From a virus, in the IMG/VR virus record IMGVR_UViG_3300028592_000008, positions 1-64,000 of that record: a stretch of DNA of 64,000 nucleotides. The stretch is one strand, 5' to 3'. Both the position numbers and the translations under genes were made by a program. The notes under the pieces were generated by a model that did no database searches, was not told the origin of the DNA, and was given only the letters and a program-made list of their open reading frames with translations. Each line of letters begins with the position of its first letter. Within the stretch, counting starts at the first letter, position 1. Shown in pieces: positions 6,767-23,343 of the stretch.

Positions 6767-6770
6767 TTGG

Positions 6771-7016
6771 ATGGAATGGCCGGTTGGACGGAAGCCTGTT
6801 TGGCCGGGGTACTTCTTTGACGGGAAGCTGTACCGCCGGACGCTGGTGGCGATGGTGGAGGAGGTGCCGATCCTGAAGGGTTGCGACCTGATGGGGGTAA
6901 AGGAGCGTCTCCGGGGGACGGCGAAGCGTCGCGGGGTAGGGATGCACGCGAAGGTGGAGGGGAAGGAGTTGGTGTTCCAGGCGATCCTTCGGGGGTCGGA
7001 AGGGGGTGCGGGGTGA
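6771..7016 (+). CDS. Small basic hypothetical protein
   Basis: 81 residues with an aromatic start (MEWPVGRKPVWPGYFFDGK) and a basic, Gly-rich second half. It overlaps the next gene by four bases (GTGA). No family recognised. Confidence 0.55.
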   Translation: MEWPVGRKPVWPGYFFDGKLYRRTLVAMVEEVPILKGCDLMGVKERLRGTAKRRGVGMHAKVEGKELVFQAILRGSEGGAG

Positions 7017-7540: not shown

Positions 7541-7634
7541 GAAGCATCGCCGGAAGGAAGAGCGGCGGCGCCGGGCGAAGATGGATCGGGCGTACGAGGA
7601 ATGGGTGGGGGCCGCGGGGGAGGTGGCGAAGTGA
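7527..7634 (+). CDS. Very small basic protein
   Basis: 35 residues starting MGRREKHRRKEERRRRAKMD: the first half is almost entirely basic, as in nucleic-acid-binding peptides. GGGGAGG lies upstream, and the gene overlaps both neighbours (ATG inside the preceding gene, GTGA at the end). Confidence 0.5.
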   Translation: MGRREKHRRKEERRRRAKMDRAYEEWVGAAGEVAK

Positions 7635-8161
7635 GTTCTATACGCGAACGTCTTTACGAGTCTGGAGAGGTCGCTCAGGTGGGCGACGTGGTGATGATCG
7701 ATTCTGTGTCGAGTGCAGAGGCGCGCGGCCTTGAGGCTGGCGAGCCTTATCGGGTCGTGGAGTTCAACTCGCTCGGTAATCTTGTGGTCGTTCCCCTGAA
7801 TGCAGTGGGCGAGAATCAAGGGCATGGTTCGCTCCGCTTCCGGTTGGTCAGGCGAGCAACTGCAGATGAAGTCCGAGAAGCCGCCAAGGATCGGCAGGCT
7901 CTTGTCGACGAGGTGGCGCGGCTGAAGGACGAGAACCAGCGGCTGCGGGAGGCGGGGGACAGTCCGGTGTTCTCGCCGATGGTCGTTCGTGCTGCGAGAC
8001 GGGCGCGGTCGCTCTATCTCGGTGAGCCTGTGCCGGACGCATGCCGCCTTCGCGCTCAGGACTGGGATGTGTTGGCAGAAGCCGCCCGTGACTTCCTCGC
8101 GTTGCACTTTGACCAGTTCGATGAATTGGGCGTCAGGACTGACACGAGTGCCCTGAAGTGA
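7631..8161 (+). CDS. Hypothetical protein with coiled coil
   Basis: 176 residues from the GTG at 7631. Residues 1-75 look like a beta-rich domain (EPYRVVEFNSLGNLVVVPLN); 85-115 form a likely coiled coil (RQALVDEVARLKDENQRLRE). The C-terminal part is helical. No family recognised. Confidence 0.55.
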   Translation: MSSIRERLYESGEVAQVGDVVMIDSVSSAEARGLEAGEPYRVVEFNSLGNLVVVPLNAVGENQGHGSLRFRLVRRATADEVREAAKDRQALVDEVARLKDENQRLREAGDSPVFSPMVVRAARRARSLYLGEPVPDACRLRAQDWDVLAEAARDFLALHFDQFDELGVRTDTSALK

Positions 8162-8273
8162 TCCGCCCGCTGTCGACCGTCAAGTCAGCGTGCAGCCCGG
8201 TGCGAGGCCGGAGGGTGTCTGAACAAGTAACGCCGCCCTCGATCCGGGGCGAACTGAGGAGAGGTGGGAGATT

Positions 8274-8507
8274 CTGAGCCCGCTGATCGAGAAGCTGTGC
8301 TGGCGTAAGGGGTGTTACGAGCCCGGGGTCCCATCGGTCGCTCACGAGCTTTGCGAGTCCTGCCGGCGGGAGTGCTTCGCGCAGCTCGACCGGGCGGGGA
8401 TGCGTCATGGCGAAAAGGGGACTGTGATGCGGGCGATCCGGCGGTTCATGGAAGGGCTGCCGATCCTCCCGGATTCGGGATTGACCGACCGGGGTGGGCA
8501 GGGGTAG
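8274..8507 (+). CDS. Small Cys-rich, zinc-binding-like protein
   Basis: About 77 residues with cysteines in CWRKGCYEP and ELCESCRREC, a spacing typical of a small zinc finger. No ATG or GTG lies at the 5' end of the frame: the candidates are CTG at 8274 or ATT at 8271, next to GAGGAG and GGGAG. The frame is open from 8223 and ends in TAG at 8505. The Cys spacing supports it as real; the start is uncertain. Confidence 0.45.
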   Translation: MSPLIEKLCWRKGCYEPGVPSVAHELCESCRRECFAQLDRAGMRHGEKGTVMRAIRRFMEGLPILPDSGLTDRGGQG

Positions 8508-8554
8508 ATTTCCGCCGCTGATTTCTGGAACGGGTTTGGACGCTTTGGGGAGAC

Positions 8555-10438
8555 ATGGGAATGGTCGAGATTCCGTCGTGGCTTTTCTGGTCAGTCTTTG
8601 TGTTGGCTTGGCTGCACGTGCTTGTTTCGTTTTGGGTCCTGTGGCAGTGGCGCCGAGAGAAGTCCCGGGCCGATGCGTTCCGCCGAGTTGTTGAGAAGTA
8701 TGAGGTTATTGTCGATCCAGGGGTCCCGGTGGGGGCACCCGCGGGGCGGAGCGGGGCGAGCGAGCCGGAGTACATGACCGAGGCTTCGCGGCCTTCGGTG
8801 GCCGGGGAGGACGGGAAGAAGCTCGCGGAGGACATGGTCGACCGTCAGCGGGAGCTCGATAAGTGCCGGGCGGAACTGACCAGCAAGGAGGAACTGCTCT
8901 CGGCTGAGATCGATCGGATCAGCGCGATCCGGCGGAACCTTGTCGCCGCGATGGAGGGCACCCGGGAGCAACTGAACTGGCTGGCCGGGCATCTCCGCCT
9001 GGAGCCACTGAAGATCGACGAGCCGACAGCGGACGCGGCGAAGCGGGTCGTGGCCGCGGCGGCTGAGAAGATTCGGGCGGCGACGCTGGAATCGCTCCCA
9101 GCGCCAGGCCCGGCGATCGTCGCCGTGAAGGGGCTGGCTGAGACTGTTCTGGTCCGCCACGACGGCCGGGACGTGGCGTGCCTGAAGTGGAAGCCGCGAC
9201 TCTGGGAGCCGCTCCCGGCCGAGTTCTACCACAAGGCCTCGGGGTCGGCCGGCTGGGCGATTCACAGGACCCAGCCGCAAGTCTCTGGGGAGTGGCTGAA
9301 GGTCTTCGGGGACGGGGAATTGGCCGTTCCGCTCTCGGTGCAGGCACACAGCCCGGAACTTGCGGAGATCGCGAAACTGTCCTCCGTGGCCGACCCGCTG
9401 AAGGTCCGGGCGATCGAGATCGAGGAAGCCCTCAAGGCCGTGCGTGAGACCGCCGGGGTGTACCTCAAGGCTCACGACGTCGCGAAGATCGGGGCCGCCC
9501 GGAACCGCCTGCAGCGCCGGGTCGATGGGCAACTGAAGCAGATCCACAAGCTGCTGAAGTGCATCGAGCGGCTGAAGCAGGAGGTCATCTCCGCCGTAGC
9601 CCGGGAGGGGACGCAGGTCTCCAAGTTCAAGGCCGAGGCGGACGACTGGCGGGCGAAGTACGACGAGATGCAGGGGCGGATCGGGACCGAGCGGAACACC
9701 GCCCTCGGACAGCTAAACGCCGAGAAGGAGCGGCTTGAGAAATGCGGTAAGGAGGCGAAAGATCCAGTCAAGGAGGCCTACTTCGCCAGCATGGCTGATG
9801 CCTTCCTGCGGGCGTACCAGATCGTCAACCGCTGCATCAAGCGGCGGGCCCCGGCGGGCGGATCGGCGGACGCTGGCCGGCGGGCGGCGACGGAGGTGGC
9901 CGTGGCCTGCGTGGAGGCGGCGATCGCGGCGGATGACGCTCCGCGGGAGATTGCTGTCAGAGGCGGATTGACAGCTTTTGCGAAGCCGTGGCACCCGAAG
10001 GCCGGAGACCTGCGTCCGGAGTTCTATTTCTGGAGGGGGTCGAGGTCGGTGGACAATGCGTGGTGTACGCGAAGCATGCCGGTAAGCGAGGCGATCAACG
10101 AATGGGAGCTACAAGACCGGGAACACATGGTCCCGTGCGACCATCCGCCGGCCGCGGAAATCGTTTCCCGGGAAACGCCGGCTCCTGGGACCGAGGAAAA
10201 AGCCTCTCCGGAGAAACCGAAGATCGAGCAGGGGGAGGTGTTCCGGGTCGGAACGGGGGAGTCCCTGGGGATCCACCAGTTCGTCCGGCTGAACCCCGGG
10301 GAGTGGCGTCCGGCGCCGCACATTGCGTGGTGTCCCGGGTGGGACCGCTTCTTCCGATTCGAGGTTCCCGGCTGGGTCCGGGAGGCGACGCCGTACCGTT
10401 TCTACCGCATTGCCACCGAGGAGGATCTGCTTCCATGA
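8555..10438 (+). CDS. Large membrane-anchored coiled-coil protein
   Basis: 627 residues. An N-terminal transmembrane segment at about 9-31 is followed by basic residues, so the bulk is probably cytoplasmic. Long heptad-rich regions lie near 85-150 and 290-410. Two similar domains stand out: about 190-265 (KWKPRLWEPLPAEFYHKASG) and 465-510 (KPWHPKAGDLRPEFYFWRGS), with a third related segment near the C terminus (RLNPGEWRPAPHIAWCPGW). These look like diverged copies of one fold. The dispersed palindrome is embedded at residues 537-541 as VSRET in a Pro/Glu/Lys-rich linker. GGGGAGAC precedes the ATG. Function unknown; membrane anchoring of a phage complex is an inference. Confidence 0.65.
   Translation: MGMVEIPSWLFWSVFVLAWLHVLVSFWVLWQWRREKSRADAFRRVVEKYEVIVDPGVPVGAPAGRSGASEPEYMTEASRPSVAGEDGKKLAEDMVDRQRELDKCRAELTSKEELLSAEIDRISAIRRNLVAAMEGTREQLNWLAGHLRLEPLKIDEPTADAAKRVVAAAAEKIRAATLESLPAPGPAIVAVKGLAETVLVRHDGRDVACLKWKPRLWEPLPAEFYHKASGSAGWAIHRTQPQVSGEWLKVFGDGELAVPLSVQAHSPELAEIAKLSSVADPLKVRAIEIEEALKAVRETAGVYLKAHDVAKIGAARNRLQRRVDGQLKQIHKLLKCIERLKQEVISAVAREGTQVSKFKAEADDWRAKYDEMQGRIGTERNTALGQLNAEKERLEKCGKEAKDPVKEAYFASMADAFLRAYQIVNRCIKRRAPAGGSADAGRRAATEVAVACVEAAIAADDAPREIAVRGGLTAFAKPWHPKAGDLRPEFYFWRGSRSVDNAWCTRSMPVSEAINEWELQDREHMVPCDHPPAAEIVSRETPAPGTEEKASPEKPKIEQGEVFRVGTGESLGIHQFVRLNPGEWRPAPHIAWCPGWDRFFRFEVPGWVREATPYRFYRIATEEDLLP
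10163..10176. promoter_or_regulatory. ParB/Noc-type palindrome, site 3
   Basis: Perfect CGTTTCCCGGGAAACG (16-base form 10162-10177) inside the coding sequence of 8555-10438, read as V-S-R-E-T in a disordered linker. Confidence 0.8.
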
Positions 10439-10833
10439 ACGTCAACCGCGAAATCCTGTTCTTTGGTGGCCCGGCGCACGGGATGGTCCAGACGATGCCA
10501 GACAGTGCCTTGAGCATTCCGTGCATTATCCAGCAGCGGGACGACGTGGACATCTGCCGGGCGTTCTCGCCGGCTTGGATCGACGTCCCGATGAACTGGC
10601 TGCAGCGGCTTGCCGCGACGCTCTTCTTGATCCCGCGGCGTGTCCTGAAACCATCCGAGCACTTCAAGCCGCGGGAGGTCAGATACCGTGCCGTGGGGCT
10701 ATACCGCCATCCTGAGACCTGGGCGGTGATGACCGTCGACGGGAAGCCCCTGGAGGGGCAGGATCTCGCCGACGCAGCCTACTACATCGACTCCCGGAGG
10801 CTGCAGCCGGTCGAGCGGTATCCGATACGCTGA
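10435..10833 (+). CDS. Hypothetical protein
   Basis: 132 residues beginning MNVNREILFFGGPAHGMVQT, coupled to the preceding gene by ATGA. The N-terminal strand-loop and the pattern of aromatic residues suggest a small alpha/beta domain. No family recognised. Confidence 0.6.
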   Translation: MNVNREILFFGGPAHGMVQTMPDSALSIPCIIQQRDDVDICRAFSPAWIDVPMNWLQRLAATLFLIPRRVLKPSEHFKPREVRYRAVGLYRHPETWAVMTVDGKPLEGQDLADAAYYIDSRRLQPVERYPIR

Positions 10834-10844
10834 TTCGTGGTCAA

Positions 10845-10918
10845 TGGGGCGTAGCTCAATCGGTAGAGCGATCGAGGTGCATGCCTGAGAGATGCCGGTT
10901 CGAGTCCGGCCGCCCCTA
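10845..10918 (+). tRNA. tRNA-like gene with unusual anticodon arm
   Basis: Six acceptor base pairs (GGGGCG/CGCCCC, with a T-T mismatch at 1:72), TA at 8-9, a perfect D stem (GCTC/GAGC) and a perfect T arm (GCCGG TTCGAGT CCGGC) are seen. The 24 bases between them do not fold into a normal 5-base anticodon stem. The best arm is TCGAG/CCTGA with one mismatch and loop GTGCATG, giving anticodon GCA (Cys). No CCA is encoded. It may be a real but odd tRNA, a decaying tRNA or a tRNA mimic. Confidence 0.55.
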
Positions 10919-10955
10919 CTCCCGGAATTCCCGGGCAAATTGAAAGGACACTGCA

Positions 10956-11147
10956 ATGCTGGTTCTGAGCCGCAAAGAGGGTGAGTCGATCATCATTGGG
11001 GATGGGATCGAGGTGAAGGTCGTCGACATCGACGGCAACAAGGTGCGGATCGGCATCGAGGCGCCGCGGAACGTATCGGTTCACCGCAAGGAGGTTTACG
11101 ACGCGATGAAGCGTGAAGCGAAGGAAGGAGGCAGCCGTGGGGCTTGA
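10956..11147 (+). CDS. csrA: CsrA/RsmA-family RNA-binding translational regulator
   Basis: 63 residues matching CsrA along its length: [12 protein letters not shown] start with Leu4 and Arg6, [20 protein letters not shown] strands, and [17 protein letters not shown] with Arg44, the RNA-contacting residue. CsrA dimers bind GGA motifs near ribosome-binding sites and alter translation or mRNA stability. A good AAAGGA precedes the ATG. The gene overlaps the next one by 11 bases. A phage copy could reprogramme host mRNAs or control phage genes; many leaders here contain GGA. Confidence 0.95.
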
Positions 11148-12027
11148 AACTGGGATTAGCTGGACCGACTACACATGGAACCCATGGCAGGGCTGCACGA
11201 AGATCAGTCCGGCGTGCGCGAATTGCTATATGTTCCCGGGGATGTGGCGATGGGGCAAGGACCCGACAGTTGTCCGCCGCTCGTCTCCACAGACTTTCAA
11301 TCTGCCGCTCAAGCGGAAGTCGGCGAAGAACGGCGGCGGATACGCGATGGAGCCGGGCAAGTGGGTGTTCACCTGCTCGTGGTCCGACTGGTTCCACAAG
11401 GACGCGGACCCTTGGAGGGACGAAGCCTGGGCAATCGTGAGGGCTCGCCCGGACCTGAACTTCCAGATCGTCACGAAGCGGACGGAGCGGATCAAGGACT
11501 GTCTGCCATCCGATTGGGGCGACGGATACCGGAACGTCATCCTGATCGCGACTGTCGAGAATCAGGAGTTCCTCGAAAAGCGGGTTCCGGACCTGTTCTC
11601 CGTCCCGGCGTGGCGTCGCGGGTTGTCGTGCGAGCCGCTGCTGGGGCCGCTCGATTTCCACCGCAGGTGCTTTGCCGACAACTGCCAGGGAGAGTGCGGA
11701 TGGCCTTCTCCGTTCGATCTCCTTGGAGACAACAAAAACGGATCCGGCGCACTGATCGACTGGATCATCACCGGCGGGGAATCCGGAACAGGGGCGCGGC
11801 CATCGAATCCTCAGTGGTTCCGGGACGTCCGGGATCAGTGCTTCTTGGCGGGAGTTCCGTTCCACCACAAGCAAAACGGCGAGTGGGTGTCTGTCAGTGA
11901 GGTCGAGGGACCCGGGGAGCACTTCGCCTTCTCGGATCACAGGGTTGTGCGGCGGGTAGGTGTCGCCGCGGCTGGGAGAACGATCGACGGAAAGGTCTAT
12001 GATGCCTTCCCGTCCATGGGAGCATAG
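11137..12027 (+). CDS. Phage Gp37/Gp68 (DUF5131) family protein
   Basis: 296 residues. The start has the family signature [14 protein letters not shown] followed by three cysteines, C20-x6-C27-x2-C30, as in other Gp37/Gp68 proteins. Later motifs also fit ([35 protein letters not shown]). The biochemical activity is not established to my knowledge; the three-Cys motif recalls metal or iron-sulfur binding, and members are found next to the TcmP three-Cys-motif partner protein in other genomes, which I do not see here. The GTG at 11137 follows AAGGAGG inside csrA, so the two are coupled. Confidence 0.85.
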
Positions 12028-12031
12028 GGAA

Positions 12032-12559
12032 ATGCGTCGTTTAAGCTGCGCGATTCTCCCGGACCTGTCGCGGGTCCGGGAGGTGACGGTGTTCTACAGG
12101 ATGCGTTGGCGTTTCGTGCGGCCGGGGGACGAAGTCCTGCTGGTCGACCGGATCGCCAATCGATCGGGAGGCGAGGCGAAAGGCCTGTCGGTAGTCCGGG
12201 TCGTTTCGATCCGCGAGACCCGGCTTATCGAGATGACGGCGGCGGCTGACGGCGGCCGGGCGGAGACGGACAGGTGCGGCTTTTGGGGGAAGACCCCGCA
12301 GGAGTTCGTGGACGCGATGTGTGACGCGCACAAGACCGATCCGTGGTACATGATCTCCCGGATCGAGGTGGAGCACGCGGAGCCGCTTCCGGAGCCGAAC
12401 TTCCGCGGGTATCTCCCGATGGACGTTCACCCCGCCCCGGAAGGTCGCGTCGCCAAGGCGATGCGAAACGGGATCGCCGCCATGACGAAGTCTCCCAACG
12501 AGGATGACATCGAACGCTGGGATGACGACGGCGGCCCGGCAGTGGAGACCGAGCAGTGA
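12032..12559 (+). CDS. Hypothetical protein with ASCH/PUA-like N-terminus
   Basis: 175 residues. The region 15-60 (VFYRMRWRFVRPGDEVLLVD followed by RVVSIRETRL) resembles the beta-barrel of ASCH/PUA-type RNA-binding domains. A second part around 85-115 has TPQEFVDAMCDAHKTDPW. The acidic C terminus is probably disordered. Domain assignment is by eye only. Confidence 0.5.
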   Translation: MRRLSCAILPDLSRVREVTVFYRMRWRFVRPGDEVLLVDRIANRSGGEAKGLSVVRVVSIRETRLIEMTAAADGGRAETDRCGFWGKTPQEFVDAMCDAHKTDPWYMISRIEVEHAEPLPEPNFRGYLPMDVHPAPEGRVAKAMRNGIAAMTKSPNEDDIERWDDDGGPAVETEQ

Positions 12560-13059
12560 TCTTGCTGGCAATCGACCCCGGGAGCGCGGAGACCGCCTGG
12601 GTCAAAATCGAGCGTGAGACCGGGCGGATCTGCGGGAAGGAGATCGTCGAAAACGACGCCTTCCGGCTGCAGCTCTGGCGGCGCGAAATCGACGGGTACG
12701 ACCGGATCGCGCTCGAGTATTTCCAGCCGCGCGGGATGCCGACCGCTGCGGAGGAGATGGACACGATCTTCTGGTCCGGCCGCTTCATCGAGGCGGCGGG
12801 CCGGGACTGGGACAAGGTGTTCCGGATGCAGGAGAAAATCTCCATCTGCGGGCACGGCTCGGCGACGGACTCCAACATCTCCACGGCGCTCCGGGATATG
12901 TACGGGGGGCAGAAGGAGGCCAAGGGGCTCAAGGCGAGCCCGGGGCCGCTGTACGGGTTCAAGGACGACCTGTGGGCGGCCCTGGCAATCGGAGTGACGT
13001 GGTTTCGTCGGAACGGGAGCCCGGAGTGGGTTCCGAACCTCGAGGAGATTCGGAAGTGA
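12556..13059 (+). CDS. RuvC-like (RNase H fold) nuclease or resolvase
   Basis: 167 residues. The first strand carries AIDPGS with Asp7, the second acidic residue is Glu54 in IALEYFQP, and KDDLWAALAIG near the C terminus supplies Asp137/Asp138. This order of acidic residues and the DPGS motif match RuvC-type Holliday junction resolvases, which cut branched DNA before packaging. The GTG start overlaps the previous stop. Confidence 0.7.
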   Translation: MILLAIDPGSAETAWVKIERETGRICGKEIVENDAFRLQLWRREIDGYDRIALEYFQPRGMPTAAEEMDTIFWSGRFIEAAGRDWDKVFRMQEKISICGHGSATDSNISTALRDMYGGQKEAKGLKASPGPLYGFKDDLWAALAIGVTWFRRNGSPEWVPNLEEIRK

Positions 13060-13475
13060 ACTACACGTTGGACGCTCTGGACAGCCAGGCAATCACGATG
13101 ATCTCGCGCGGCGTCGGGACCCTCCGGATTTCGGAGGCTGCGAAGCGGAAGATCATGGCGGCTTGGAAACCGCCGGATCACATGCGGCATCCGCTTATCT
13201 CATTCGAGGGGCTGCTCGGCCTGGGGATCGACGTCACGGTGGACCCGTCGATGCCGATCTTCGTGAAGTCGAACCGCCTGCGTTCCCGGGACCGCTTCAC
13301 GCTCTTCGAGGCCGCGGACGCCGATTGGGCGGTGGCGGCCGGGCTCGCGGAGTGGGAGCTGGACGAGGTCCATGCCGTCTGGTTCGACGAGCTGCGTCTT
13401 CAGTTCTACCGCTCGCACTACAACTTCGGGGTGAAGTTGATGGAGCCGCGGGGATTCATCCGGGGGCTCGCGTAG
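13056..13475 (+). CDS. Hypothetical protein
   Basis: 139 residues from a GTG that overlaps the RuvC-like gene's stop. Soluble, no membrane segment, acidic C-terminal half rich in Trp and Phe. No family recognised. Confidence 0.6.
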   Translation: MNYTLDALDSQAITMISRGVGTLRISEAAKRKIMAAWKPPDHMRHPLISFEGLLGLGIDVTVDPSMPIFVKSNRLRSRDRFTLFEAADADWAVAAGLAEWELDEVHAVWFDELRLQFYRSHYNFGVKLMEPRGFIRGLA

Positions 13476-13476
13476 C

Positions 13477-13695
13477 GTGAAGCAGTTTCAGATCAGCGAG
13501 GAAGACCTGCAGTCCCTCGAGCACATTCTCCCGGCCGTGCTGTGGAAGCTGACCTGCAGGCCAGATGCGGACCCGCAGGATCGCGTCCACTTCCGTCAGG
13601 TCCGGGGCATCCTGACAAACGTGCGATGGGGATACTGGCCCCCGGAGAACGTAGAGATCATTCCGCCAGGGGAGACTGACCATGCTGCTGAGTGA
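13477..13695 (+). CDS. Small hypothetical protein
   Basis: 72 residues (MKQFQISEEDLQSLEHILPA at the start) from GTG. It overlaps the following terminase-like gene by 14 bases. Size and helical start would be compatible with a packaging accessory protein, but nothing proves it. Confidence 0.55.
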   Translation: MKQFQISEEDLQSLEHILPAVLWKLTCRPDADPQDRVHFRQVRGILTNVRWGYWPPENVEIIPPGETDHAAE

Positions 13696-14428
13696 GTTTC
13701 AGGCGTTGCCATTTCAGGACGCCGCACTGAATTGTGGGCAGAAGATCCAGATCATCCGCGGGGGCAATCGGTCCTCGAAGAGCCTGGTCGCTGCCGTGAA
13801 GGTGGCCGCCGCGCTGACCGGGGAGACGGTGAAGCTGTCCAACGGGGCGGGCGTGGCGTACACCCCGGCGAAGCGGGTCTACTGCGCCGGGAAGGACTTC
13901 GAGCACGTCTCGGAGAAAATGGCGGCGCCGCTGTTCGGGTCGGCCATCGGAATCGGGGAGGCCCCGGGACTGATCGCCGCCGACAAGATCGAGATGGTTT
14001 CGTGGTTCAACAAGACGCTTGGCTGGCCGGCGATGGTCCGGCTGAAGAGCGGTGCCGAGGTTGTTTTCGGACAGGGATTCAGCAATCACGGGTTCCGCTT
14101 CGCGATCATCTGGGCAGACGAGAAGGTGCTCAGCGACGGGCGGCTCCTGTCGATGGTTGCGCAGGCCGACGTCTTCATCTGGTCGACCTGGCCGGACTCG
14201 ACGAACGACGAGCTCCGGAGGCTGTGCAAGCTGGCGGCGGAGACCGGCGCGGAGTTCGTCTTCCGGATGCAGGACAACACCACGATCTCCGAAGAGAAGC
14301 GGGCGTCGATCCTGGAGACGTGGGGAGCATTGGGGTCGCAGCATTTGCAGGCCCGGAACCTCGGCGAATTCCCGGCCGATCCGCCGGCCGAAGAGAAAGC
14401 TCTTGACACGGAGAAGCCGGCCCCCTAG
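13682..14428 (+). CDS. Terminase-like ATPase lacking the nuclease domain (TerL paralogue)
   Basis: 248 residues, homologous by eye to the ATPase half of the full TerL at 24023-25774. Shared blocks: IIRGGNRSSKS (residues 24-34) versus LIRGGNRSGKS; AIIWADEKV (141-149) versus IIWVDEKV; FIWSTWPDSTNDELRR (165-180) versus FWWSTWPTSTNTALRS; and WGALGSQHLQARNLGEF versus WQALGAGHVQARNEGEF. It stops where TerL continues into its nuclease domain. The Walker A glycine before Lys33 is Ser32, so ATP use may be altered. GGGGAGACTGACC precedes the ATG. A gene-free, structured stretch follows immediately. It could be an accessory packaging ATPase, a decoy subunit or a decaying duplicate. Confidence 0.8.
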   Translation: MLLSEFQALPFQDAALNCGQKIQIIRGGNRSSKSLVAAVKVAAALTGETVKLSNGAGVAYTPAKRVYCAGKDFEHVSEKMAAPLFGSAIGIGEAPGLIAADKIEMVSWFNKTLGWPAMVRLKSGAEVVFGQGFSNHGFRFAIIWADEKVLSDGRLLSMVAQADVFIWSTWPDSTNDELRRLCKLAAETGAEFVFRMQDNTTISEEKRASILETWGALGSQHLQARNLGEFPADPPAEEKALDTEKPAP

Positions 14429-14429
14429 T

Positions 14430-15020
14430 GTTCCGCCGGTGACGCCTTCCTGTCCTCAACCGGGAAGTCGAAAATTTGATTTTGCATTTCGTAGGCTTCG
14501 GCCTGCGGAAATAAGCCCGTGTGGTTAGGCGAGTTGAGGCGCCTTCCACGCGGGCTATTTTCGTGGACTGAGGCGAATGAACGAGCCAAAGCTCTCATAG
14601 CGCCCATTTGCAGTTCTGGTTAAGCACGAACCCCTGGGTGCGACCGGAGCCAAGCATATGGGCACCTTAACGCCCAAGGTATGTCGGGGACGTGAACGCC
14701 GGGAAAGGGTTATTTGCTGCCCGTGTCGATTGCAGGCGAAGGTCGCCGCGAAGCACGGGGTAAGGCGTAATTCCCCGGAGACATGATGTGGCGATGGTAG
14801 CCTAAACCTCGCTGGGCAATATCACCTTCCACCTTGTGTGGACACCGCATTAAGCGGAGCAACCGTCGTGAGGAATCAGGCTGAGTTCGCAGCGACGTTA
14901 AACAAATGCGGGGAGTAGCCCCACAAGCCATCACGCGCCGGGACCAAACCCTTAGCGCTCAAGCCGGGACCGATGGACGCTGTTCTTTTGTTGGACGAAC
15001 ACTGGACTCTTTGAGGATTA
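14430..15020 (+). ncRNA. Candidate large structured noncoding RNA
   Basis: About 590 bases with no usable reading frame, visibly less GC-rich than the flanks, but full of perfect helices. Examples: a 10-base stem capped by a UUCG tetraloop (14487-14510); an 11-base stem 14514-14524/14546-14556 enclosing AGGCG/CGCCT; CCTCAAC (14454-14460) pairing with GTTGAGG (14533-14539) in that hairpin's loop, a pseudoknot; GCCCAT/ATGGGC (14602/14658) crossing GTTAAG/CTTAAC (14619/14666); CCCGTG/CACGGG (14720/14754) around GGCGA/TCGCC; CGTCG/CGACG (14864/14893); and GGGG/CCCC (14910/14919). I see no tmRNA, RNase P, group I or group II hallmarks. Large phage RNAs such as GOLLD or ROOL are the nearest concept, but no match is claimed. 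Confidence 0.6.
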
Positions 15021-15024
15021 TGAC

Positions 15025-15456
15025 ATGCCACGTTACGAGCTTATCAATCCGAGCGACTACTACACCTTCGAAGCCCGGGACATCCTGATCGCCGGCGCGG
15101 TGACGATGTTCCTGAGTTCCAACTTCGGGGCGGTGCAGATCCACCCGGAGGGGGACGAGCGGACGCCGATGCTGTTCGGCTGGGAGGAGTGGTTCAAGTC
15201 GAAGGGGGTCGACCTGCATGATCCGAAGTGGACCCGGGAGAACCTGCAGGCGATCGCGGAGGCTTTCGAGTCGTTCGTCATCGGGGACCGGGCGGAGTAC
15301 ATGGCTGGGCTCGAGGCGACCCTGGAGGCAGACCGGCCGGCGTTCATCGAGAAGTGGAACAACGAGAAGCGGAGCAGCGTGAACGACATCGGGAAGGCCG
15401 CGCGGAGCTACGCGACTCAGTGTCGGAAGATGCTTGAGGCTGTGGCCGCGGGCTGA
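15025..15456 (+). CDS. Hypothetical protein
   Basis: 143 residues, soluble. The N-terminal part reads ELINPSDYYTFEARDILIAG; the C-terminal half is helical with EKWNNEKRSSVNDIGKAARS. The first gene after the structured RNA candidate; GAGGA lies before the ATG. No family recognised. Confidence 0.65.
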   Translation: MPRYELINPSDYYTFEARDILIAGAVTMFLSSNFGAVQIHPEGDERTPMLFGWEEWFKSKGVDLHDPKWTRENLQAIAEAFESFVIGDRAEYMAGLEATLEADRPAFIEKWNNEKRSSVNDIGKAARSYATQCRKMLEAVAAG

Positions 15457-15491
15457 GTCGCCCGGGATCGAACACTGGACGCTGGGAGTCG

Positions 15492-15800
15492 ATGATGGTG
15501 ACGCCGATCGGCCCGGATGACGTGGTGGCAAACCGCGGGGTGACGACGATCCCGCAGGCGGTGATCCTCGCCTTCAACCGTCTGATCGAGGGGCGGTGGG
15601 ACGGGGTGCAGGCCCGGTTCACGCGGTCGGATGCGGTCGGAGCGATCTGGGCGGCGACGGGTCTGTGCGAGCAGGAGATGTTGCACGCCCGGCATCTGGA
15701 CATTGAGCCGCTGTACCGGGACGCTGGGTGGAAGGTGACGTACGAGGCCCCGGAGATCGGGGAGACGTGGGAAGCCCATTACGTTTTCGAGGTGCGGTGA
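15492..15800 (+). CDS. Hypothetical protein
   Basis: 102 residues with the pattern PQAVILAFNRLIEGRWDG near the start, a helical block often seen in small uncharacterised phage proteins. Two adjacent ATG codons (15492 and 15495) are possible starts. It overlaps the next start by one base. Confidence 0.6.
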   Translation: MMVTPIGPDDVVANRGVTTIPQAVILAFNRLIEGRWDGVQARFTRSDAVGAIWAATGLCEQEMLHARHLDIEPLYRDAGWKVTYEAPEIGETWEAHYVFEVR

Positions 15801-16210
15801 TGGACCCGGTGTCTTTTCAGATCGCTCTGCTGTTCGTCGTCCTGGGCGTCTGCGCGGCCGCGGTGTTGCGGAAGATGCAGGAGACCAGGGAGTTCGAGTT
15901 GCGGATGTTTCAGATCGCCGAGCGGTGGGACAATCGCTGCGACTATCGATGGCAGGACCGGGTCGAGATTGACCCTGTGAAGGCCGAGGAGGCGCACGAC
16001 AAAATCGTCCGAGATCACAAGGCGTATTTCATCGAACTCGAGTGGCGCCGTCTCGGCGCGGGAGGATCCAGTGGTGGCGAGAAACCAGAAGACTCAGCCG
16101 GACCCGGTGGCGGCGATGATCGGGCCGATGCGTCGGGCGGCCCTGGCGGGGACGTATGCCGGGAAGGTGCCGACTCCGTACTTCATGTCGTGCCGCCGGG
16201 TGATTCCTGA
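15800..16210 (+). CDS. Membrane-anchored hypothetical protein with overlapping tail
   Basis: 136 residues. A transmembrane segment lies at about 8-24 (ALLFVVLGVCAAAVL), followed by a charged helical region. From about residue 91 the sequence becomes Gly/Asp-rich low complexity because the frame runs 140 bases into the next gene. The functional part is probably the first 90 residues. Confidence 0.55.
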   Translation: MDPVSFQIALLFVVLGVCAAAVLRKMQETREFELRMFQIAERWDNRCDYRWQDRVEIDPVKAEEAHDKIVRDHKAYFIELEWRRLGAGGSSGGEKPEDSAGPGGGDDRADASGGPGGDVCREGADSVLHVVPPGDS

Positions 16211-16634
16211 GCTCGGGGTGAGCGTCTGCTTCACCCGGGACGTCGGGTATCACACGAGCGGCTGGTGGAAGAACCCGGACTACGAACGCTGCTTCCACCT
16301 GAGCCTCGCGTTCTACCATCCGTACTCGAACAACGAGCCACGGCCGCGGGACTACGCGATCACCGATCGGTTCATCCGCGGGTTGTACGGGGACGCCCGG
16401 CGGATGATCTGGTGCGAGCCTCCGTACTCTGAGAAGGGGAAGCGGGAGGACATCTGGCACTACCGGCTGTTCTGCGACGAGGGGTGGCAGCCGATCAAGC
16501 CTCGCGGCGAGGTGTACGAGAAGGAGCTGACGGAGGCCGGCTGGAAGTCCTACAGCGACGTGCAGGCGGACGCACTGAAGAAGTCGCTCGCCGAACTGAA
16601 CGGCTACATGCAGGGAGGCCGCGGCCGACCATGA
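16071..16634 (+). CDS. Hypothetical protein
   Basis: 187 residues from a GTG preceded by GGAGGATCCA. The central part is rich in Trp, Tyr and His (TSGWWKNPDYERCFHLSLAF), giving a globular look. No family recognised; the gene belongs to a chain of coupled short genes ending at 17621. Confidence 0.65.
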   Translation: MVARNQKTQPDPVAAMIGPMRRAALAGTYAGKVPTPYFMSCRRVIPELGVSVCFTRDVGYHTSGWWKNPDYERCFHLSLAFYHPYSNNEPRPRDYAITDRFIRGLYGDARRMIWCEPPYSEKGKREDIWHYRLFCDEGWQPIKPRGEVYEKELTEAGWKSYSDVQADALKKSLAELNGYMQGGRGRP

Positions 16635-16906
16635 TCGAGGAAGGGGAAGTCCAGCCCGGCGTCCTGCGTCGCTGCGAAGCGTGCGGTCACCGGGACGACT
16701 ACCCGGCCTACGCGGATCGGTGCATCGCCTGCAGCCATCGGTTCGGGGAAGCGATCTCCCGGGTCCCGGCGAAGGAATTCATGATCCTCTGGCACTGCGG
16801 GCCCTGCGATAAGTTTCACGAGTCCGACTACCGTTTCGACGCCCGGTGTTCGTGCGGGAAGACGGGGATCATTGGGCGGGCGGAGCTGCCCGGGAGAGAG
16901 CCTTGA
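16631..16906 (+). CDS. Small double zinc-ribbon protein
   Basis: 91 residues with two Cys clusters: CEACGH...CIACSH (about 14-36) and WHCGPCDKFH...CSCGK (about 57-80). The CxxC spacing is typical of zinc ribbons that bind DNA, RNA or protein. ATG overlaps the preceding stop. The partner is unknown. Confidence 0.65.
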   Translation: MIEEGEVQPGVLRRCEACGHRDDYPAYADRCIACSHRFGEAISRVPAKEFMILWHCGPCDKFHESDYRFDARCSCGKTGIIGRAELPGREP

Positions 16907-17283
16907 GTCTTTGCCCAGCGTTTGTTCGCGCCGAGGACGGCAATCTGTACCGGAACCCGACGATCCGCGGGGAGGACTGGTACGTCTGCTTCGATGATGA
17001 CGATCCGCCGGAGTTGGTCGTCTTCGCGCCGACGTTCGAGCGAGCGTGGCGGAGGATGTGGACGCTGAAGAGGCAGCACGGATTCATCGGGTCGTTTCAG
17101 GAGTACTGGCACCCGGTCAGATATTCCTGGAGAAACGGCTGCCCGAAGAATCTGTCCGCATGGAGCCGGTTCTTCGGGTTGGCGGCGCCAATCCCTGTTC
17201 CTACTGACAGGGGCCCGGTGACAAACCTGAAGCGGGAGTACGTCCTGTACGATCCTGTGGCCGCTGGCCGAGAGGTGTGGTGA
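16903..17283 (+). CDS. Hypothetical protein
   Basis: 126 residues from a TTG that overlaps the preceding TGA. The region WYVCFDDDDPPELVVFAPTF and the following basic helical stretch look globular. No family recognised. Confidence 0.55.
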   Translation: MSLCPAFVRAEDGNLYRNPTIRGEDWYVCFDDDDPPELVVFAPTFERAWRRMWTLKRQHGFIGSFQEYWHPVRYSWRNGCPKNLSAWSRFFGLAAPIPVPTDRGPVTNLKREYVLYDPVAAGREVW

Positions 17284-17621
17284 TGAAGTACCTCGAGTCG
17301 ATGCGAGCCGGCGACCCCGCGCGGTCCAAGGCGATGAAGAAGGCCAGGGCACGGTACGGTCGCATGCTCTGGAACGAGATGGCGAGGATGCGAACGGAGG
17401 AGGAGCGGAACGCTCTGATCCGGCGGTGTGGCGAGAAGGCGTGTGAGCGTGGTCTCTACGCCAAGACGTACGGGTGGAAGCTGGCCGGGTGCGCGCTGGT
17501 CAGGTGGGCAGTGACCAGGATGTCCAGCCTTGAGAGCTATCACGAATGGAAGAACCGGGTCGGATTCATTCCTTACGCGGGCGGGTTCACCCGGCTGCGG
17601 CTGATGAGGGATGCCGGATAG
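17283..17621 (+). CDS. Small basic hypothetical protein
   Basis: 112 residues, strongly basic and helical (SKAMKKARARYGRMLWNEMA), suggesting nucleic-acid binding. The ATG at 17283 follows GAGAGG; two GTG codons just upstream are alternatives. It ends just before a gene-free structured stretch. Confidence 0.55.
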   Translation: MKYLESMRAGDPARSKAMKKARARYGRMLWNEMARMRTEEERNALIRRCGEKACERGLYAKTYGWKLAGCALVRWAVTRMSSLESYHEWKNRVGFIPYAGGFTRLRLMRDAG

Positions 17622-17628
17622 AGATCAT

Positions 17629-17815
17629 TTCGCCGCGGACTGGAACGGCTTGTAAACAGGTGCCGGGAAAGACCCACCCGGGGGCAATAGGAGCTCCCGG
17701 CCGCGGCGAACGTAGGGGCAGTCACCGACCCGAAGTGCGAACTCGAGCGCCTGGGGGTGAGCGTGTGGGGGTTGCCGAGCATGGACGCAAAAGCCCCTTG
17801 TTTCGTAGGCTGATG
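17629..17815 (+). ncRNA. Candidate structured RNA / leader
   Basis: A 196-base gap without a gene. TTCGCCGCGG (17629-17638) pairs perfectly over 10 bases with CCGCGGCGAA (17701-17710), and CCGGGA (17663-17668) pairs with TCCCGG (17695-17700) directly inside. Further on, GGGG and GCCCC near 17768-17797 can pair. It lies just upstream of the gene at 17818 and could be its regulatory leader or an independent small RNA. I do not recognise the class. Confidence 0.45.
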
Positions 17816-17817
17816 CA

Positions 17818-19155
17818 ATGAAAACTCTGACCTACCATTGTTCCCGGGAACCGAGGCCGCAGGACGTCGAGACTGCCTACCTCGAGGCTCGAGGCCTGGC
17901 GGGTCCGGCGAGTTTCTGGGACAGGGCTGGCGGGAAGAAGGGTCCGTTCACCCAGCGGCGCGATGGCGGCCGGCTGATGGCTGATCTTGGGCCCGGCGAC
18001 CATGTCGTCTTTCGGTCGATCGGCTCGGCGTTCGGAAGCCTGGCTGACTGGCGGGACACGGTGCGGCTGATGCTGGTCCGCGGGGCGACGGTCCATTTCA
18101 TCGGCGAGGGGCTGGTCATCTCCCGGGAATCTTCGTGGGTCGTGGGGACCGTGCTCGACGTCTACCTCCGCTTCGTGGCCGAGTTCGCGTCGGCGGACCG
18201 GCGGCGGCCGACGGAACCGTGCTCACAGCGGAAGCGGCGGTGTTCCGGAGGTGAAGTGGAGATTCCGGCCGGGAAGTTCGACGAGCTGTTGCGCCAGCAG
18301 AAGTGGGGCGACTGCCGGTTCCCGGCGACGACCGGGACACGGCACTCATACGCCATGCTGGAGGAGCCGCCGCGTTTCCCGGGAAACGATTTCCGGTACT
18401 GGCGCGAGGTGCGATACCTCCACACGCAGTACCCGTTCATCGAGCGTCCGGAGGGGAAGCGGCTGGTGCTGCGGGCCAAGCCAGGCGACGCGATGTTCGT
18501 CTGCGCCGGAAAGGCCTTCCGTTCTGTCGAAGACATGGTCTCCGCTTCCCGGACGCTTGCCGCCATTGGTGTCTCGGTGACGATCACGGACTTCGGGATC
18601 ACGACGCTGGCCGAGGAGGGGCGCGCCCTGATGAACCTGCTGGCGGTGTACGACATCTTGGCCCGGCGGCGGAAGTCGGAAGAACGCAAAGAACGCGGGC
18701 AGCGGAAGCAGATAACGATGGAGCTCCCGTTCTACCTGAAACGGCGGCCGAACGGGCGGGTCGTCATCAACGAGTTCCGGCTGTGGGGCGTCCTGCAGGT
18801 TCTCAATCGTCGGGAAATGAGGGGGATCGAGCTCGAGGACTGGATGGAAGAGCAGGAGGCCGAGCACTTCGGGGACCGGAAGCTGCCCCGCCACACGATC
18901 AACCGGCGGGCCAGGTATCGCTGGCACCCGGATCACGGCACGCTGCTTCGGCACCCGGGGCGCGGATACTGCCGGTCGCGATTCTGGCACAAGGCCCGGA
19001 TCAACGACATCCGTCGCGCGGGGCTGGAGCCGGTGAAGACCATGCTCGCCCAATACGGAATTCGTTTCCCGGGAAACGATATGCCCCGGCCACCGAAGGC
19101 CAGCCGGCGGAAGCGGGGAGTCACGAGCGGAACTGATTCCAGTCAGCCAGAGTGA
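17818..19155 (+). CDS. Protein with two resolvase-like domains, probably not catalytic
   Basis: 445 residues. Two stretches follow the order of a serine-recombinase N-terminal domain: residues 1-125, with LGPGDHVVFRSIGSAFGSLADWRDTVRLML..GATVHFIGEG (split), and 195-290, with AKPGDAMFVCAGKAFRSVEDMVSASRTL..IGVSVTITDFG. In real resolvases this block is pGD-hydrophobic-DRxxRS-dl; here the catalytic arginines are not evident. Residues 290-400 are basic with HTINRRARYRWHPDH, possibly DNA-binding. Two perfect palindromes are embedded as RFPGN (186-190 and 416-420) and one shortened copy lies at 17840. The fold assignment is an inference. Confidence 0.5.
   Translation: MKTLTYHCSREPRPQDVETAYLEARGLAGPASFWDRAGGKKGPFTQRRDGGRLMADLGPGDHVVFRSIGSAFGSLADWRDTVRLMLVRGATVHFIGEGLVISRESSWVVGTVLDVYLRFVAEFASADRRRPTEPCSQRKRRCSGGEVEIPAGKFDELLRQQKWGDCRFPATTGTRHSYAMLEEPPRFPGNDFRYWREVRYLHTQYPFIERPEGKRLVLRAKPGDAMFVCAGKAFRSVEDMVSASRTLAAIGVSVTITDFGITTLAEEGRALMNLLAVYDILARRRKSEERKERGQRKQITMELPFYLKRRPNGRVVINEFRLWGVLQVLNRREMRGIELEDWMEEQEAEHFGDRKLPRHTINRRARYRWHPDHGTLLRHPGRGYCRSRFWHKARINDIRRAGLEPVKTMLAQYGIRFPGNDMPRPPKASRRKRGVTSGTDSSQPE
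17840..17851. promoter_or_regulatory. Shortened palindrome variant
   Basis: GTTCCCGGGAAC, the dispersed palindrome lacking one T-A pair per arm, 22 bases into the resolvase-like gene. It may be a weak site or chance. Confidence 0.35.
18374..18387. promoter_or_regulatory. ParB/Noc-type palindrome, site 4
   Basis: Perfect CGTTTCCCGGGAAACG (18373-18388) inside the resolvase-like gene, read as R-F-P-G-N. Confidence 0.8.
19064..19077. promoter_or_regulatory. ParB/Noc-type palindrome, site 5
   Basis: Perfect 16-base form at 19063-19078, near the 3' end of the resolvase-like gene, again read as R-F-P-G-N, 690 bases from site 4. This is the closest pair of perfect sites after sites 1 and 2. Confidence 0.8.
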
Positions 19156-19390
19156 CGTAAACTACGCCGCCGATTTCCTTTGAGCCGAGAATGCGGGTCG
19201 AGCCGTTCTGCAATTTGGCTCCAACTTTGATCCATCGGTAGATCGTCCGAGCGCTCTTGACGATCCCGAATCGCTCCTGCAGGACCCGGACGAAATTCGC
19301 CACCGTCCACTCTTCGGGTGCCTTGCTTCGCTTTGCCATTTCGTGACATCCATCGGGGGATGATTGCGTGAAGGGAATCTGGGGAGCCAT
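19121..19390 (-). CDS. DUF1580-like helix-turn-helix protein
   Basis: 89 residues from the ATG at 19390, or 72 from the ATG at 19339 (MAKRSKAPEEW). The core KSARTIYRWIKVGAKLQNG..RILGSKEIGGVVYVTLADWNQF (split) resembles the MerR/excisionase-type DNA-binding fold of DUF1580 proteins, which are mostly known from planctomycetes. It is the only leftward gene in this part, converges on the gene at 17818 (35-base overlap) and diverges from the scaffold gene, so it may regulate late genes or direct excision. Confidence 0.55.
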   Translation of the reverse strand: MAPQIPFTQSSPDGCHEMAKRSKAPEEWTVANFVRVLQERFGIVKSARTIYRWIKVGAKLQNGSTRILGSKEIGGVVYVTLADWNQFRS

Positions 19391-19437
19391 CGTAATCGCC
19401 TGCGGCGGGAAGTTCTAACTCACGGTGACACGCGATT

Positions 19438-20730
19438 ATGGCACGTCCAAGATCAACCAAAGGGGCTCAGACAGCGACCGGCCCGGCCGCCGCGCCGAGC
19501 GTGAAGGACGAACGGGCTCCGTCCATGCGGGAGCTCGGCGAGCAGGTTCTCGCCGGCCGCAGCGAGACGGACTCGAACGCCAGCGACGCCGCGGCAAGTG
19601 CGGCCCTCGGCGGAGTCCCAGGTGCCAGCGACGACGTTGAGGAAGACAGTCCGCTCTCGACCGACGATTCGGACTTCGGCGTGCAGGCTCAGGGGCAGGA
19701 CGGCGACATCTTCGAGGACGACGATGTCCCTGCTCAGGGGCAGCAGGACGGCCAAGCTCCTCCGTCCCGCGCGATCGCCGAGGCGTTCAAGGCCCGGAAC
19801 ATGGGCTGGGACGAGGACGTCACCGACGAAGACATCATCGCGGAATTCCAGCACACGAACACGCTGCTCGCCCAGCAGCAGGAAGAGCTCAACTGGTATC
19901 GGCAGCAGGCCGCAGCGGGCGGCCAGGGGAATCAGGGTGCAGGCTCAGCCGCTCCGGCGCCGGGCACGGGCGCGACCGGGGGGGCGTCACCTGCCCCCGG
20001 CGCGCCTAAGTTGCCTGAGTTCAAGGTAGACGCGCCGGAGTGGGACCCGGCGTGGGAAGCCGGCCTGAAGGTGGACGAAGAGGGCACGATCGTCGCGAAG
20101 CCCGGCTGGGATCCGAGCTTGCCCGGGAAGTACAACCGCTTCAAGCAATGGGAATCGCAGCAGATTTCCACCTTGGCCCGGAACCCGTACCTCCTGCAGA
20201 TGGCTCAGAATCCGCAGGCGTTCCTCGAGCAGATCGTTCGCCCGATGGCCGAGCAGATCGCCACCGCCCGGACGAACGAGCTGGCCGGTCAGTACCAGCG
20301 TCAGAGCGAGGACGCCTACATCAACCAGATCCGGGCTCAGGCCGGGTATCTGAACACGAACGCCGCTGGGCAGGTCGTTCGGCACGCGAAGACCGGGCAG
20401 GTCATGCTCACCCCGGAGGGGCAGGCGTTCGAGCGTGAATTCGCCGCGCTCCTTCAGGACGCCCCGGGGATGTCCCGGGTCAAGGCTGCCGAACTCGCCT
20501 CCCGTCTGCACCCGCCGCGCAAGGCCGCGGCCCCGGCCCGGCAGACCAACGGCGGTGCGGCTCCGGCTCAGCGTGCGACGAGCCCGACGTACGGGCAGCG
20601 TCTCGGGGGAACCGTTCATCAGCCGCGGCGGACCCCGGCAAATCGAATCCCGACTGACGGTCGGGGTCTCCCGGATCAGCGAGCTCTCGGAGAAGCGTAC
20701 CTCCGGGAAAAGCAGTCCGGGGCGCAGTGA
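19438..20730 (+). CDS. Putative capsid scaffolding protein
   Basis: 430 residues, placed directly before the capsid gene. The first 130 residues are acidic and disordered; 130-150 are helical and Gln-rich (LAQQQEELNWYRQQ); a Gly/Ala/Pro linker follows; 220-370 are helical; the C terminus is basic and Pro-rich. Acidic-helical-basic layout and position fit a scaffold that guides prohead assembly and is then removed. No protease motif is seen in it. Confidence 0.65.
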   Translation: MARPRSTKGAQTATGPAAAPSVKDERAPSMRELGEQVLAGRSETDSNASDAAASAALGGVPGASDDVEEDSPLSTDDSDFGVQAQGQDGDIFEDDDVPAQGQQDGQAPPSRAIAEAFKARNMGWDEDVTDEDIIAEFQHTNTLLAQQQEELNWYRQQAAAGGQGNQGAGSAAPAPGTGATGGASPAPGAPKLPEFKVDAPEWDPAWEAGLKVDEEGTIVAKPGWDPSLPGKYNRFKQWESQQISTLARNPYLLQMAQNPQAFLEQIVRPMAEQIATARTNELAGQYQRQSEDAYINQIRAQAGYLNTNAAGQVVRHAKTGQVMLTPEGQAFEREFAALLQDAPGMSRVKAAELASRLHPPRKAAAPARQTNGGAAPAQRATSPTYGQRLGGTVHQPRRTPANRIPTDGRGLPDQRALGEAYLREKQSGAQ

Positions 20731-20797
20731 TCGGTCCGGTTTCACTTTCAGGTTTCATGTAACTGCCGGGTGACCCCGGATCACGAGGAGTCCAGCG

Positions 20798-21955
20798 ATG
20801 GCGAACTTGGTGCCGCAGACGACTGACGAAGCGACGGAAGTCGCGCGGGCAACAGCTCCGACCTTCATCAAGGGGTTTGCGGACCTCACGATGCGGAAGC
20901 GGATTTGGATGGCCCTCCTGCGGAAGTACGGTCGGGTCCTGTTCAACCAGGGCGGTCACACGACCGTCTGGGGTGTCCGGGTCCGGGAGGCGACGCCGCA
21001 CACGATCGGGGCGAACCCGACGTTCGACTTCAACTCCATCAACCGGAACGAGCAGCTCTCGCTCGACTGGCGTGGCTACGGGCACGAAGGCGTGCTGTGG
21101 GTGAAGGACAAGCTGATGAACGGCCAGGCTGGCGCGTCGCAGCTTTGGAACATGCTGAACGACCGCACGGAAACGCTCGCGGAAGAGTTCGCCCGCATGT
21201 TCAACCGCGAGATTTACGTTGACGGCGAAGCGGCCGGCAACGGCGAGCGGTTCCACGGTCGCGGGACGTTCCTGAACTACAAGGCCGGGGTGACCTCGGA
21301 CGACCGCGTCGCTCTTCCGGACGGCAGTTACGCCGGCCTGTCGATCGAGCTCGGCGGCCTCGGCGGCTCCTGCACCAATGCGATCTCGGCCGGCGAGAAG
21401 CCGAACACCGACCTCGGGGCCGACTGGCCGGAAGGTCAGGCGACGGCGGACTTCGACGCGACGAGCCCGCTGATCCTGAACATCTCGTCGGATCGCTGGA
21501 CGCCGGACGGCGGCACGACCTGGCGGGACAACAACGAGGCGATTCTCTCGTACACCAACGAGATCCAGTCGGCTCGCGGCGCCCGGGAATCCCGGACGGC
21601 AGGTGAGGCTCCGATCCTCAACCTGATGACGGCGAAGATGAAGAACGAGTTCGAGATGGGACAGCGCGGGCGGTTCCAGATCAACCTGCAGATGCAGGAG
21701 ATGATCGACCTCGGATTCCCGGACACGTACCGCTACGAAGGTGCGGTGATCGCGGCGGACTACGAATGCCCGCACGGCGAAATGCACCAGCTTTCCCCGG
21801 GCACGATGGAGTACGCGGCGCTGACCGAGGACTACTGGACCTTCGAAGGTCCGACGTACCTCCCCGGGCAGATGAAGTGGATCTGGCTGCTGTACACCTA
21901 CGGCAACTTCCGCTTCCAGCCCAAGTGTGAGGCGTTCGGCAAGAGCATCGCCTGA
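20798..21955 (+). CDS. Major capsid protein (putative)
   Basis: 385 residues. Size, position after the scaffold and before terminase and portal, and an N-terminal helix followed by beta-rich sequence fit a HK97-fold capsid protein. Features include FADLTMRKRIWMALLRKYG, a loop with WRGYGHEGVLWVKDK and a C-terminal WLLYTYGNFRFQPKCEAFG. GAGGAGT before the ATG is strong, as expected for an abundant product. The assignment rests on context rather than a recognised motif. Confidence 0.7.
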   Translation: MANLVPQTTDEATEVARATAPTFIKGFADLTMRKRIWMALLRKYGRVLFNQGGHTTVWGVRVREATPHTIGANPTFDFNSINRNEQLSLDWRGYGHEGVLWVKDKLMNGQAGASQLWNMLNDRTETLAEEFARMFNREIYVDGEAAGNGERFHGRGTFLNYKAGVTSDDRVALPDGSYAGLSIELGGLGGSCTNAISAGEKPNTDLGADWPEGQATADFDATSPLILNISSDRWTPDGGTTWRDNNEAILSYTNEIQSARGARESRTAGEAPILNLMTAKMKNEFEMGQRGRFQINLQMQEMIDLGFPDTYRYEGAVIAADYECPHGEMHQLSPGTMEYAALTEDYWTFEGPTYLPGQMKWIWLLYTYGNFRFQPKCEAFGKSIA

Positions 21956-22035
21956 TCCGATCCTGCGTAGGGACCGGCAGTTCTGTTCGATAGAAAACCT
22001 GCGGCGAGGGCCGCAAACCTCTGAGGGGACGAGTC

Positions 22036-23314: not shown

Positions 23315-23343
23315 TCCTTCTGCACGCGAAGCACTGAAGGGGG

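What the first reader, a model, noticed from the sequence alone, without database searches (positions are those of the whole stretch)
14430..15020. About 590-base gene-free region with multiple perfect helices and pseudoknots
Between two genes lies a stretch with no reading frame but dense complementary segments, including a UUCG-capped 10-base stem, an 11-base stem with a loop-upstream 7-base pseudoknot, and two crossing 6-base helices. It is larger than most phage RNAs and matches no class I know by eye. Large ornate RNAs of unknown function exist in phages (GOLLD, ROOL), so this may be a member or a new class.
Basis: partly seen in the sequence, partly recalled or inferred. Interest (0 to 1): 0.86.

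Follow-up and report, generated by a model that had tools for sequence, protein, structure and literature searches.

The report
Folded non-coding RNA in unusual phage
A 596-base stretch between two genes of a poorly known phage codes for no protein and folds, as RNA, far better than chance over its first two-thirds, but no relative could be found, so whether it is a new large phage RNA or an ordinary mRNA hairpin region stays open.

Summary
The gap 14429-15024 is real and non-coding: codon-usage signal stops near the upstream stop codon and resumes at the downstream ATG, and GC falls from 65% to 57%. It is more folded than chance, but not evenly. One 33-pair hairpin (14495-14574) makes 14501-14600 the most over-folded of 1,278 windows in the 64 kb. 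A second hairpin (14602-14663) is over-stable on the + strand only. A 13-pair long-range helix could close 14429-14861 into one domain (z -5.6; 0 of 206 shuffles of the gap hold an equally stable 433-base stretch). The last 163 bases show no excess folding. The UUCG stem, 11-base stem and 7-base pseudoknot exist, but perfect helices in general are no more numerous than in shuffles. It matches no Rfam family (GOLLD and ROOL included). No homologue appeared in phage or plasmid records, or in pattern scans of viral and prokaryotic contigs, so covariation, the decisive test, could not be run. Best reading: a + strand structured intercistronic RNA whose main hairpin processes or attenuates the operon mRNA. 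A stand-alone new RNA class is almost as likely. An ATPase-only copy of the phage's terminase lies directly upstream.

The parts
14429..15024 (+). non-coding gap, GC 57% against about 65% around it
   Evidence: coding potential negative in all six frames, gap -0.5 to -0.7 bits/codon against +0.15 to +0.64 in genes; listed as one of the longest non-coding runs in the window
14429..14861 (+). candidate closed RNA domain (433 nt) whose ends pair with each other
   Evidence: z -5.55 on +, -2.07 on -; 48 control windows of the same length reach -4.23 at most; best 433-nt stretch beats 206 of 206 shuffles of the gap. The boundaries are predicted.
14429..14441 (+). 5' arm of the closing helix (UGUUCCGC + CGGUG), starting at the base after the upstream stop codon
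   Evidence: pairs with GCGGAGCA 14854-14861 and CACCG 14843-14847, mean pair probability 0.96 and 0.89
14843..14861 (+). 3' arm of the closing helix; CCGCAUUAAGCGG could alternatively form a local hairpin
14495..14574 (+). main hairpin, 33 pairs of which 6 are G.U, 8-nt loop AGUUGAGG at 14532-14539
   Evidence: -52.2 kcal/mol, z -8.2 on + and -4.7 on -, 0 of 400 shuffles; top-ranked 100-nt window of 1,278
14514..14556 (+). GC-rich core of the main hairpin (11-pair stem plus inner 5-pair AGGCG/CGCCU), followed by AUUUUCG
   Evidence: terminator d-score -0.2
14469..14563 (+). alternative three-way junction: stem 14469-14475/14557-14563, UUCG hairpin 14487-14510, 11-pair stem 14514-14556
   Evidence: lowest-energy fold of this stretch taken alone, z -5.7; competes with the 33-pair hairpin
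14454..14460 (+). CCUCAAC, complementary to 7 of 8 loop bases of the main hairpin (14533-14539); UCCUCAA 14453-14459 is also complementary to UUGAGGA 15011-15017 at the ribosome site of the next gene
   Evidence: pairing not shown
14572..14604 (+). small hairpin (GAGC CAAA GCUC core)
   Evidence: z -3.1 on +
14602..14663 (+). second hairpin GCCCAUUUGC...GCAUAUGGGC
   Evidence: pair probability 0.98; z -4.25 on +, -0.92 on -
14680..14785 (+). third, weaker folded domain
   Evidence: z -2.6 on +, -2.9 on -
14862..15024 (+). 3' part without excess folding; holds the ribosome-binding-like GAGGA (15013-15017) of ORF 15025
   Evidence: z +0.9; sequence
13682..14428 (+). upstream gene: ATPase-only paralogue of the phage's own terminase large subunit, no nuclease part
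   Evidence: 35% identity over 156 aa to 24023-25774, E 2e-20; 24023-25774 matches phrog_2 terminase large subunit
15025..15456 (+). downstream gene, 143 aa, phrog_10705 of unknown function

Best explanation
The gap is a non-coding, structured intercistronic RNA read from the + strand as part of the long operon bounded by the strong terminators at 5957 and 23371. Its dominant part, an irregular 33-pair hairpin 67 bases after the upstream stop codon, most likely acts in cis on the mRNA: as a double-strand-specific RNase (RNase III type) cleavage site and/or partial transcription terminator that separates expression of the upstream genes from the 15025 group. The second hairpin and the long-range closing helix would protect or fold the ends left behind. 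Shown here: non-coding, over-folded, + strand bias, not a known family. Inferred: that it is transcribed, the cleavage or attenuation, and the effect on the neighbours.
For: Non-coding. Main hairpin z -8.2, the best window of 1,278. + strand folds better than - strand for both hairpins and for the 433-nt domain, and 6 of 33 pairs of the main hairpin are G.U, which works as RNA but not as a DNA palindrome. Most of the excess stability of the 433 nt comes from the two hairpins. Same-strand genes on both sides with no promoter-like site found in 13000-16000, so an mRNA-embedded element is the economical reading. The hairpin core followed by AUUUU scores borderline as a terminator.
Against: A processing or attenuation hairpin needs about 80 bases, not 433-596. 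The GC stem lacks a full U-tract (d -0.2 against 16 to 43 for the phage's four clear terminators). No transcript data. No homologue, so no covariation. Neither the closing helix nor the pseudoknot has been tested.
Confidence: 0.38

Rival explanations
1. A stand-alone large phage non-coding RNA of an undescribed class, folded as a closed 433-nt domain and acting in trans or as a homo-oligomer, in the manner of ROOL and GOLLD but unrelated to them.
For: 596 bases without a gene; 5' and 3' ends of 14429-14861 pair; z -5.55 for the domain and 0 of 206 shuffles as stable; no Rfam match; phage-borne. ROOL and GOLLD are phage RNAs of comparable size whose function is unknown (PMC12286853).
Against: 14575-14861 without the main hairpin has only z -2.2 and 14786-14864 none; no recognisable promoter or terminator of its own; no second copy or relative anywhere searched; not near a tRNA island (one tRNA-Cys 3.5 kb upstream).
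Confidence: 0.32
2. A long 5' leader that controls translation of ORF 15025: the ribosome site is held in the predicted long-range helix 14865-14880/15010-15024 or by UCCUCAA 14453-14459, which can pair either with the hairpin loop or with UUGAGGA.
For: Pair probability 0.97 and 0.86 for the helices that cover the ribosome site; 7-base match of 14453-14459 to 15011-15017.
Against: 14862-15024 folds no better than chance; SD-like purine runs match CCUC by chance; the related genes in three named phages have no comparable gap before them.
Confidence: 0.1
3. A DNA site (replication origin, packaging or recombination site) rather than an RNA.
For: AT-richer gap in a GC-rich genome; the main hairpin core is stable on both strands.
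Against: No iterons (only two pairs of 9-nt direct repeats in 14300-15150); GC skew does not change sign in any lasting way; no copy of the phage's GTTTCCCGGGAAAC palindrome in it; hairpin II folds on + only.
Confidence: 0.1
4. Decayed former gene or neutral filler in which one hairpin (a weak terminator) is the only functional part.
For: No coding signal, 3' 240 bases unstructured; terminator-like hairpin.
Against: A second hairpin and the closed domain are also over-folded on the + strand; phages rarely keep 500 idle bases.
Confidence: 0.1

Closest known systems
ROOL and GOLLD RNAs
   Same: large, structured, non-coding, phage-encoded, function unknown (PMC12286853)
   Different: no covariance-model match even with permissive filters; shorter folded domain; not beside a tRNA island; no known relatives
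Intercistronic RNase III processing hairpins such as those of phage T7 early mRNA (from own knowledge)
   Same: irregular hairpin of more than 20 pairs between same-strand phage genes
   Different: the folded region here is several times longer; cleavage not tested
Intrinsic terminators
   Same: GC-rich hairpin followed by AUUUU
   Different: weak U-tract, 41-nt stem-loop, d -0.2 against 16-43 for the phage's own terminators
phi29 packaging RNA (pRNA)
   Same: structured phage RNA next to a packaging-type ATPase gene without a complete nuclease half
   Different: no Rfam match; the phage also has a full terminase (24023-25774); adjacency is the only link

Membership tests
GOLLD / ROOL | match to the family covariance model | tested here: not met
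   no hit at gathering score on the window; none with E up to 10 on 14300-15150 or 14429-14861
GOLLD / ROOL | phage or prophage location | tested here: met
   record is a virus contig of 72,427 bases
GOLLD / ROOL | often near tRNA islands | tested here: not met
   two tRNAs in 64 kb, nearest 3.5 kb upstream
GOLLD / ROOL | secondary structure supported by covariation | not testable with these tools
   no homologue found
Intrinsic terminator | stable GC-rich hairpin | tested here: met
   14515-14555, -28.7 kcal/mol
Intrinsic terminator | U-tract directly after the stem | tested here: inconclusive
   UAUUUUCG; d-score -0.2, borderline
phi29-type packaging RNA | match to the pRNA model | tested here: not met
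phi29-type packaging RNA | binds a packaging ATPase and portal | not testable with these tools
   only gene adjacency
Group I or group II intron | match to the intron covariance models | tested here: not met
Group I or group II intron | interrupts a gene | tested here: not met
   ORF 15025 begins with its own ribosome site and ATG, and homologues align from residue 1-4
CsrB-like CsrA-binding RNA | excess of GGA/AGGA motifs | tested here: not met
   GGA 17 vs 12.1 expected (p 0.09), AGGA 2 vs 2.6
tmRNA / tRNA | ARAGORN or Rfam detection | tested here: not met

The most novel reading that the evidence does not exclude
14429-14861 is the first sighted member of a new class of large phage non-coding RNA with a closed multi-hairpin architecture, possibly working with the ATPase-only terminase paralogue encoded directly upstream (a pRNA-like accessory of DNA packaging).
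Probability: 0.25. Interest if true: 0.78.

Novelty: new member of a known kind. Interest (0 to 1): 0.42.

Why it matters
If it is a discrete RNA it adds an unrelated example to the very short list of large structured phage RNAs of unknown function, in a phage whose main structural genes have no close relative among named phages. The terminase-ATPase neighbour gives a concrete partner to test. If it is only a processing hairpin it is ordinary.

Tried and rejected
Known RNA family: rejected; a SAM_alpha match of 13.1 bits at 14864-14907 (E 4.2) lacks the pseudoknot partner in its loop and is chance. Missed protein gene: rejected by codon-usage scores in six frames. Intron: no model match and neither neighbour is interrupted. 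CsrA sponge, suggested by the phage's own CsrA gene: GGA motifs not enriched. Homologue searches without success: blastn of the gap against phages and plasmids; own genome, one copy only; viral contigs scanned with the upstream protein, the terminase, the downstream protein, a terminase-paralogue alignment, two DNA patterns and back-translated nonsense frames of the RNA; genome contigs with the terminase alignment and a nonsense frame. The 16 loci with GACGTTAAACAAATGC carry no further similarity to the gap, and most fall into a few groups with near-identical flanks, so they are unrelated matches. A structure model of the upstream ATPase was too poor to use (pLDDT 42). Relatives cannot be drawn for a virus record.

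Full report
What was checked. The finding lies between ORF 13682-14428 and ORF 15025-15456, all on the + strand of a 72,427-base virus record. A codon-usage score trained on 24 genes of this phage is clearly positive in the upstream frame until about 14380 and in the downstream frame from about 15000; in between no frame on either strand scores as coding. The gap is among the longest non-coding runs in the window and has nearly the lowest GC of them.

Is the structure more than chance? Folding energy does show a signal, concentrated in the 5' part. The 100-nt window 14501-14600 has the lowest z (-5.6) of 1,278 windows along the 64 kb. The hairpin 14495-14574 (33 pairs, 6 of them G.U) has z -8.2 on the + strand and -4.7 on the - strand; hairpin 14602-14663 has -4.25 and -0.92. 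The stretch 14429-14861, whose first 13 bases pair with its last 19, has z -5.55 (+) and -2.07 (-), while 48 control windows of the same length reach -4.23 at most. Because those limits were chosen after seeing the fold, I repeated the test with the choice built in: the best 80-nt and the best 433-nt stretch were sought in each of 206 dinucleotide shuffles of the gap, and none was as stable as the real one (z about -4.6 for both). By contrast 14786-14864 and 14862-15024 fold no better than shuffled sequence, and the full 596 nt (z -3.1 to -3.6) is not outstanding against control windows of this GC-rich genome.

Anatomy. Two folds compete at the 5' side: the 33-pair hairpin, and a three-way junction made of CGAAAAU/AUUUUCG (14469-14475/14557-14563), the UUCG hairpin (14487-14510) and the 11-pair stem (14514-14556), which is the best fold of that stretch when it is taken alone. 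The 7-base pseudoknot CCUCAAC/GUUGAGG would occupy 7 of the 8 loop bases of the main hairpin; by a rough count the chance of such a match within 100 bases is a few per cent, so it is plausible but unproven. The G.U content and the better folding of the + strand point to an RNA read in the direction of the genes rather than to a DNA palindrome (inference).

What it is not. Rfam gives no match at gathering scores for the gap (the two matches in the window are tRNAs), and only chance-level matches (E 3 to 7) with permissive filters, so it is not GOLLD, ROOL, an intron, tmRNA, the phi29 pRNA or any other curated class at that sensitivity. A CsrA-binding sponge was considered because the phage encodes CsrA, but GGA motifs are not enriched. 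As an intrinsic terminator the hairpin is borderline (d -0.2; formula from own knowledge), whereas four sites in the same genome are clear (42.8, 34.6, 27.1, 16.4 at 23371, 5957, 59566, 52117). These terminators bracket a long + strand unit from 5957 to 23371 in which the gap lies.

Relatives. None was found: one copy in its own genome; no blastn match in phages (E up to 10) or plasmids (E up to 1); none in viral or prokaryotic contigs by pattern-based scans. The phage itself is an orphan at this sensitivity: its terminase, head protein and portal have no tblastn match among 50,697 phage records, and pattern scans for the terminase in viral and genome contigs found no relative. Absence of relatives therefore neither supports nor refutes a new class, and covariation remains untested.

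Mechanism. The most economical reading is an mRNA-embedded element: a long irregular hairpin shortly after a stop codon, inside a same-strand unit, with a weak U-tract, is what a processing or attenuating hairpin looks like. What this does not explain is why 430-600 bases are kept without a gene, and why the two ends of 14429-14861 pair. That leaves a stand-alone RNA nearly as likely. The neighbour upstream is worth noting: 13682-14428 is a 248-aa paralogue of the phage's own terminase (35% over 156 aa) that keeps GGNRSSKS and IIWADEK and stops before the nuclease half; its structure model was too poor to add anything. A link with the RNA rests on adjacency alone.

Verdict. It is a good candidate for experimental or metagenomic follow-up, not yet a demonstrated new RNA class.

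Noticed in passing
window 3263, 3708, 10163, 18374, 19064, 28854, 32606, 39474, 49096, 54077, 63841 (54522 with one mismatch): Perfect 14-bp palindrome GTTTCCCGGGAAAC dispersed over the phage, 11 exact copies where about 0.1 matches are expected. It resembles a parS site, and the phage has a ParB-like HTH protein at 46125-47033.
   Followed up: partly
window 13682-14428 and 24023-25774: Two terminase-type ATPases in one phage: a full terminase large subunit and an ATPase-only paralogue.
   Followed up: partly
window 10956-11147: Phage-encoded CsrA-like regulator directly upstream of a DUF5131 gene and just after a tRNA-Cys gene.
   Followed up: no
window 5930-6760: Strong terminator (to 5957) followed by several hundred bases with no coding signal by this phage's codon usage; possible control or origin region.
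   Followed up: no
window 14996-15007 and 15469-15480: The same 12-mer CGAACACTGGAC stands shortly before the start codons of two consecutive genes (15025 and 15492).
   Followed up: partly
window 36840-39053: 737-aa protein with matches to polynucleotide kinase (phrog_415) and, below the curated cut-off, phosphoribosyltransferase.
   Followed up: no
window 54451-54550: Second most over-folded 100-nt window (z -5.3), overlapping the one-mismatch copy of the palindrome.
   Followed up: no
whole record: Terminase, head protein and portal have no tblastn match in 50,697 phage records: an unusual phage lineage.
   Followed up: partly
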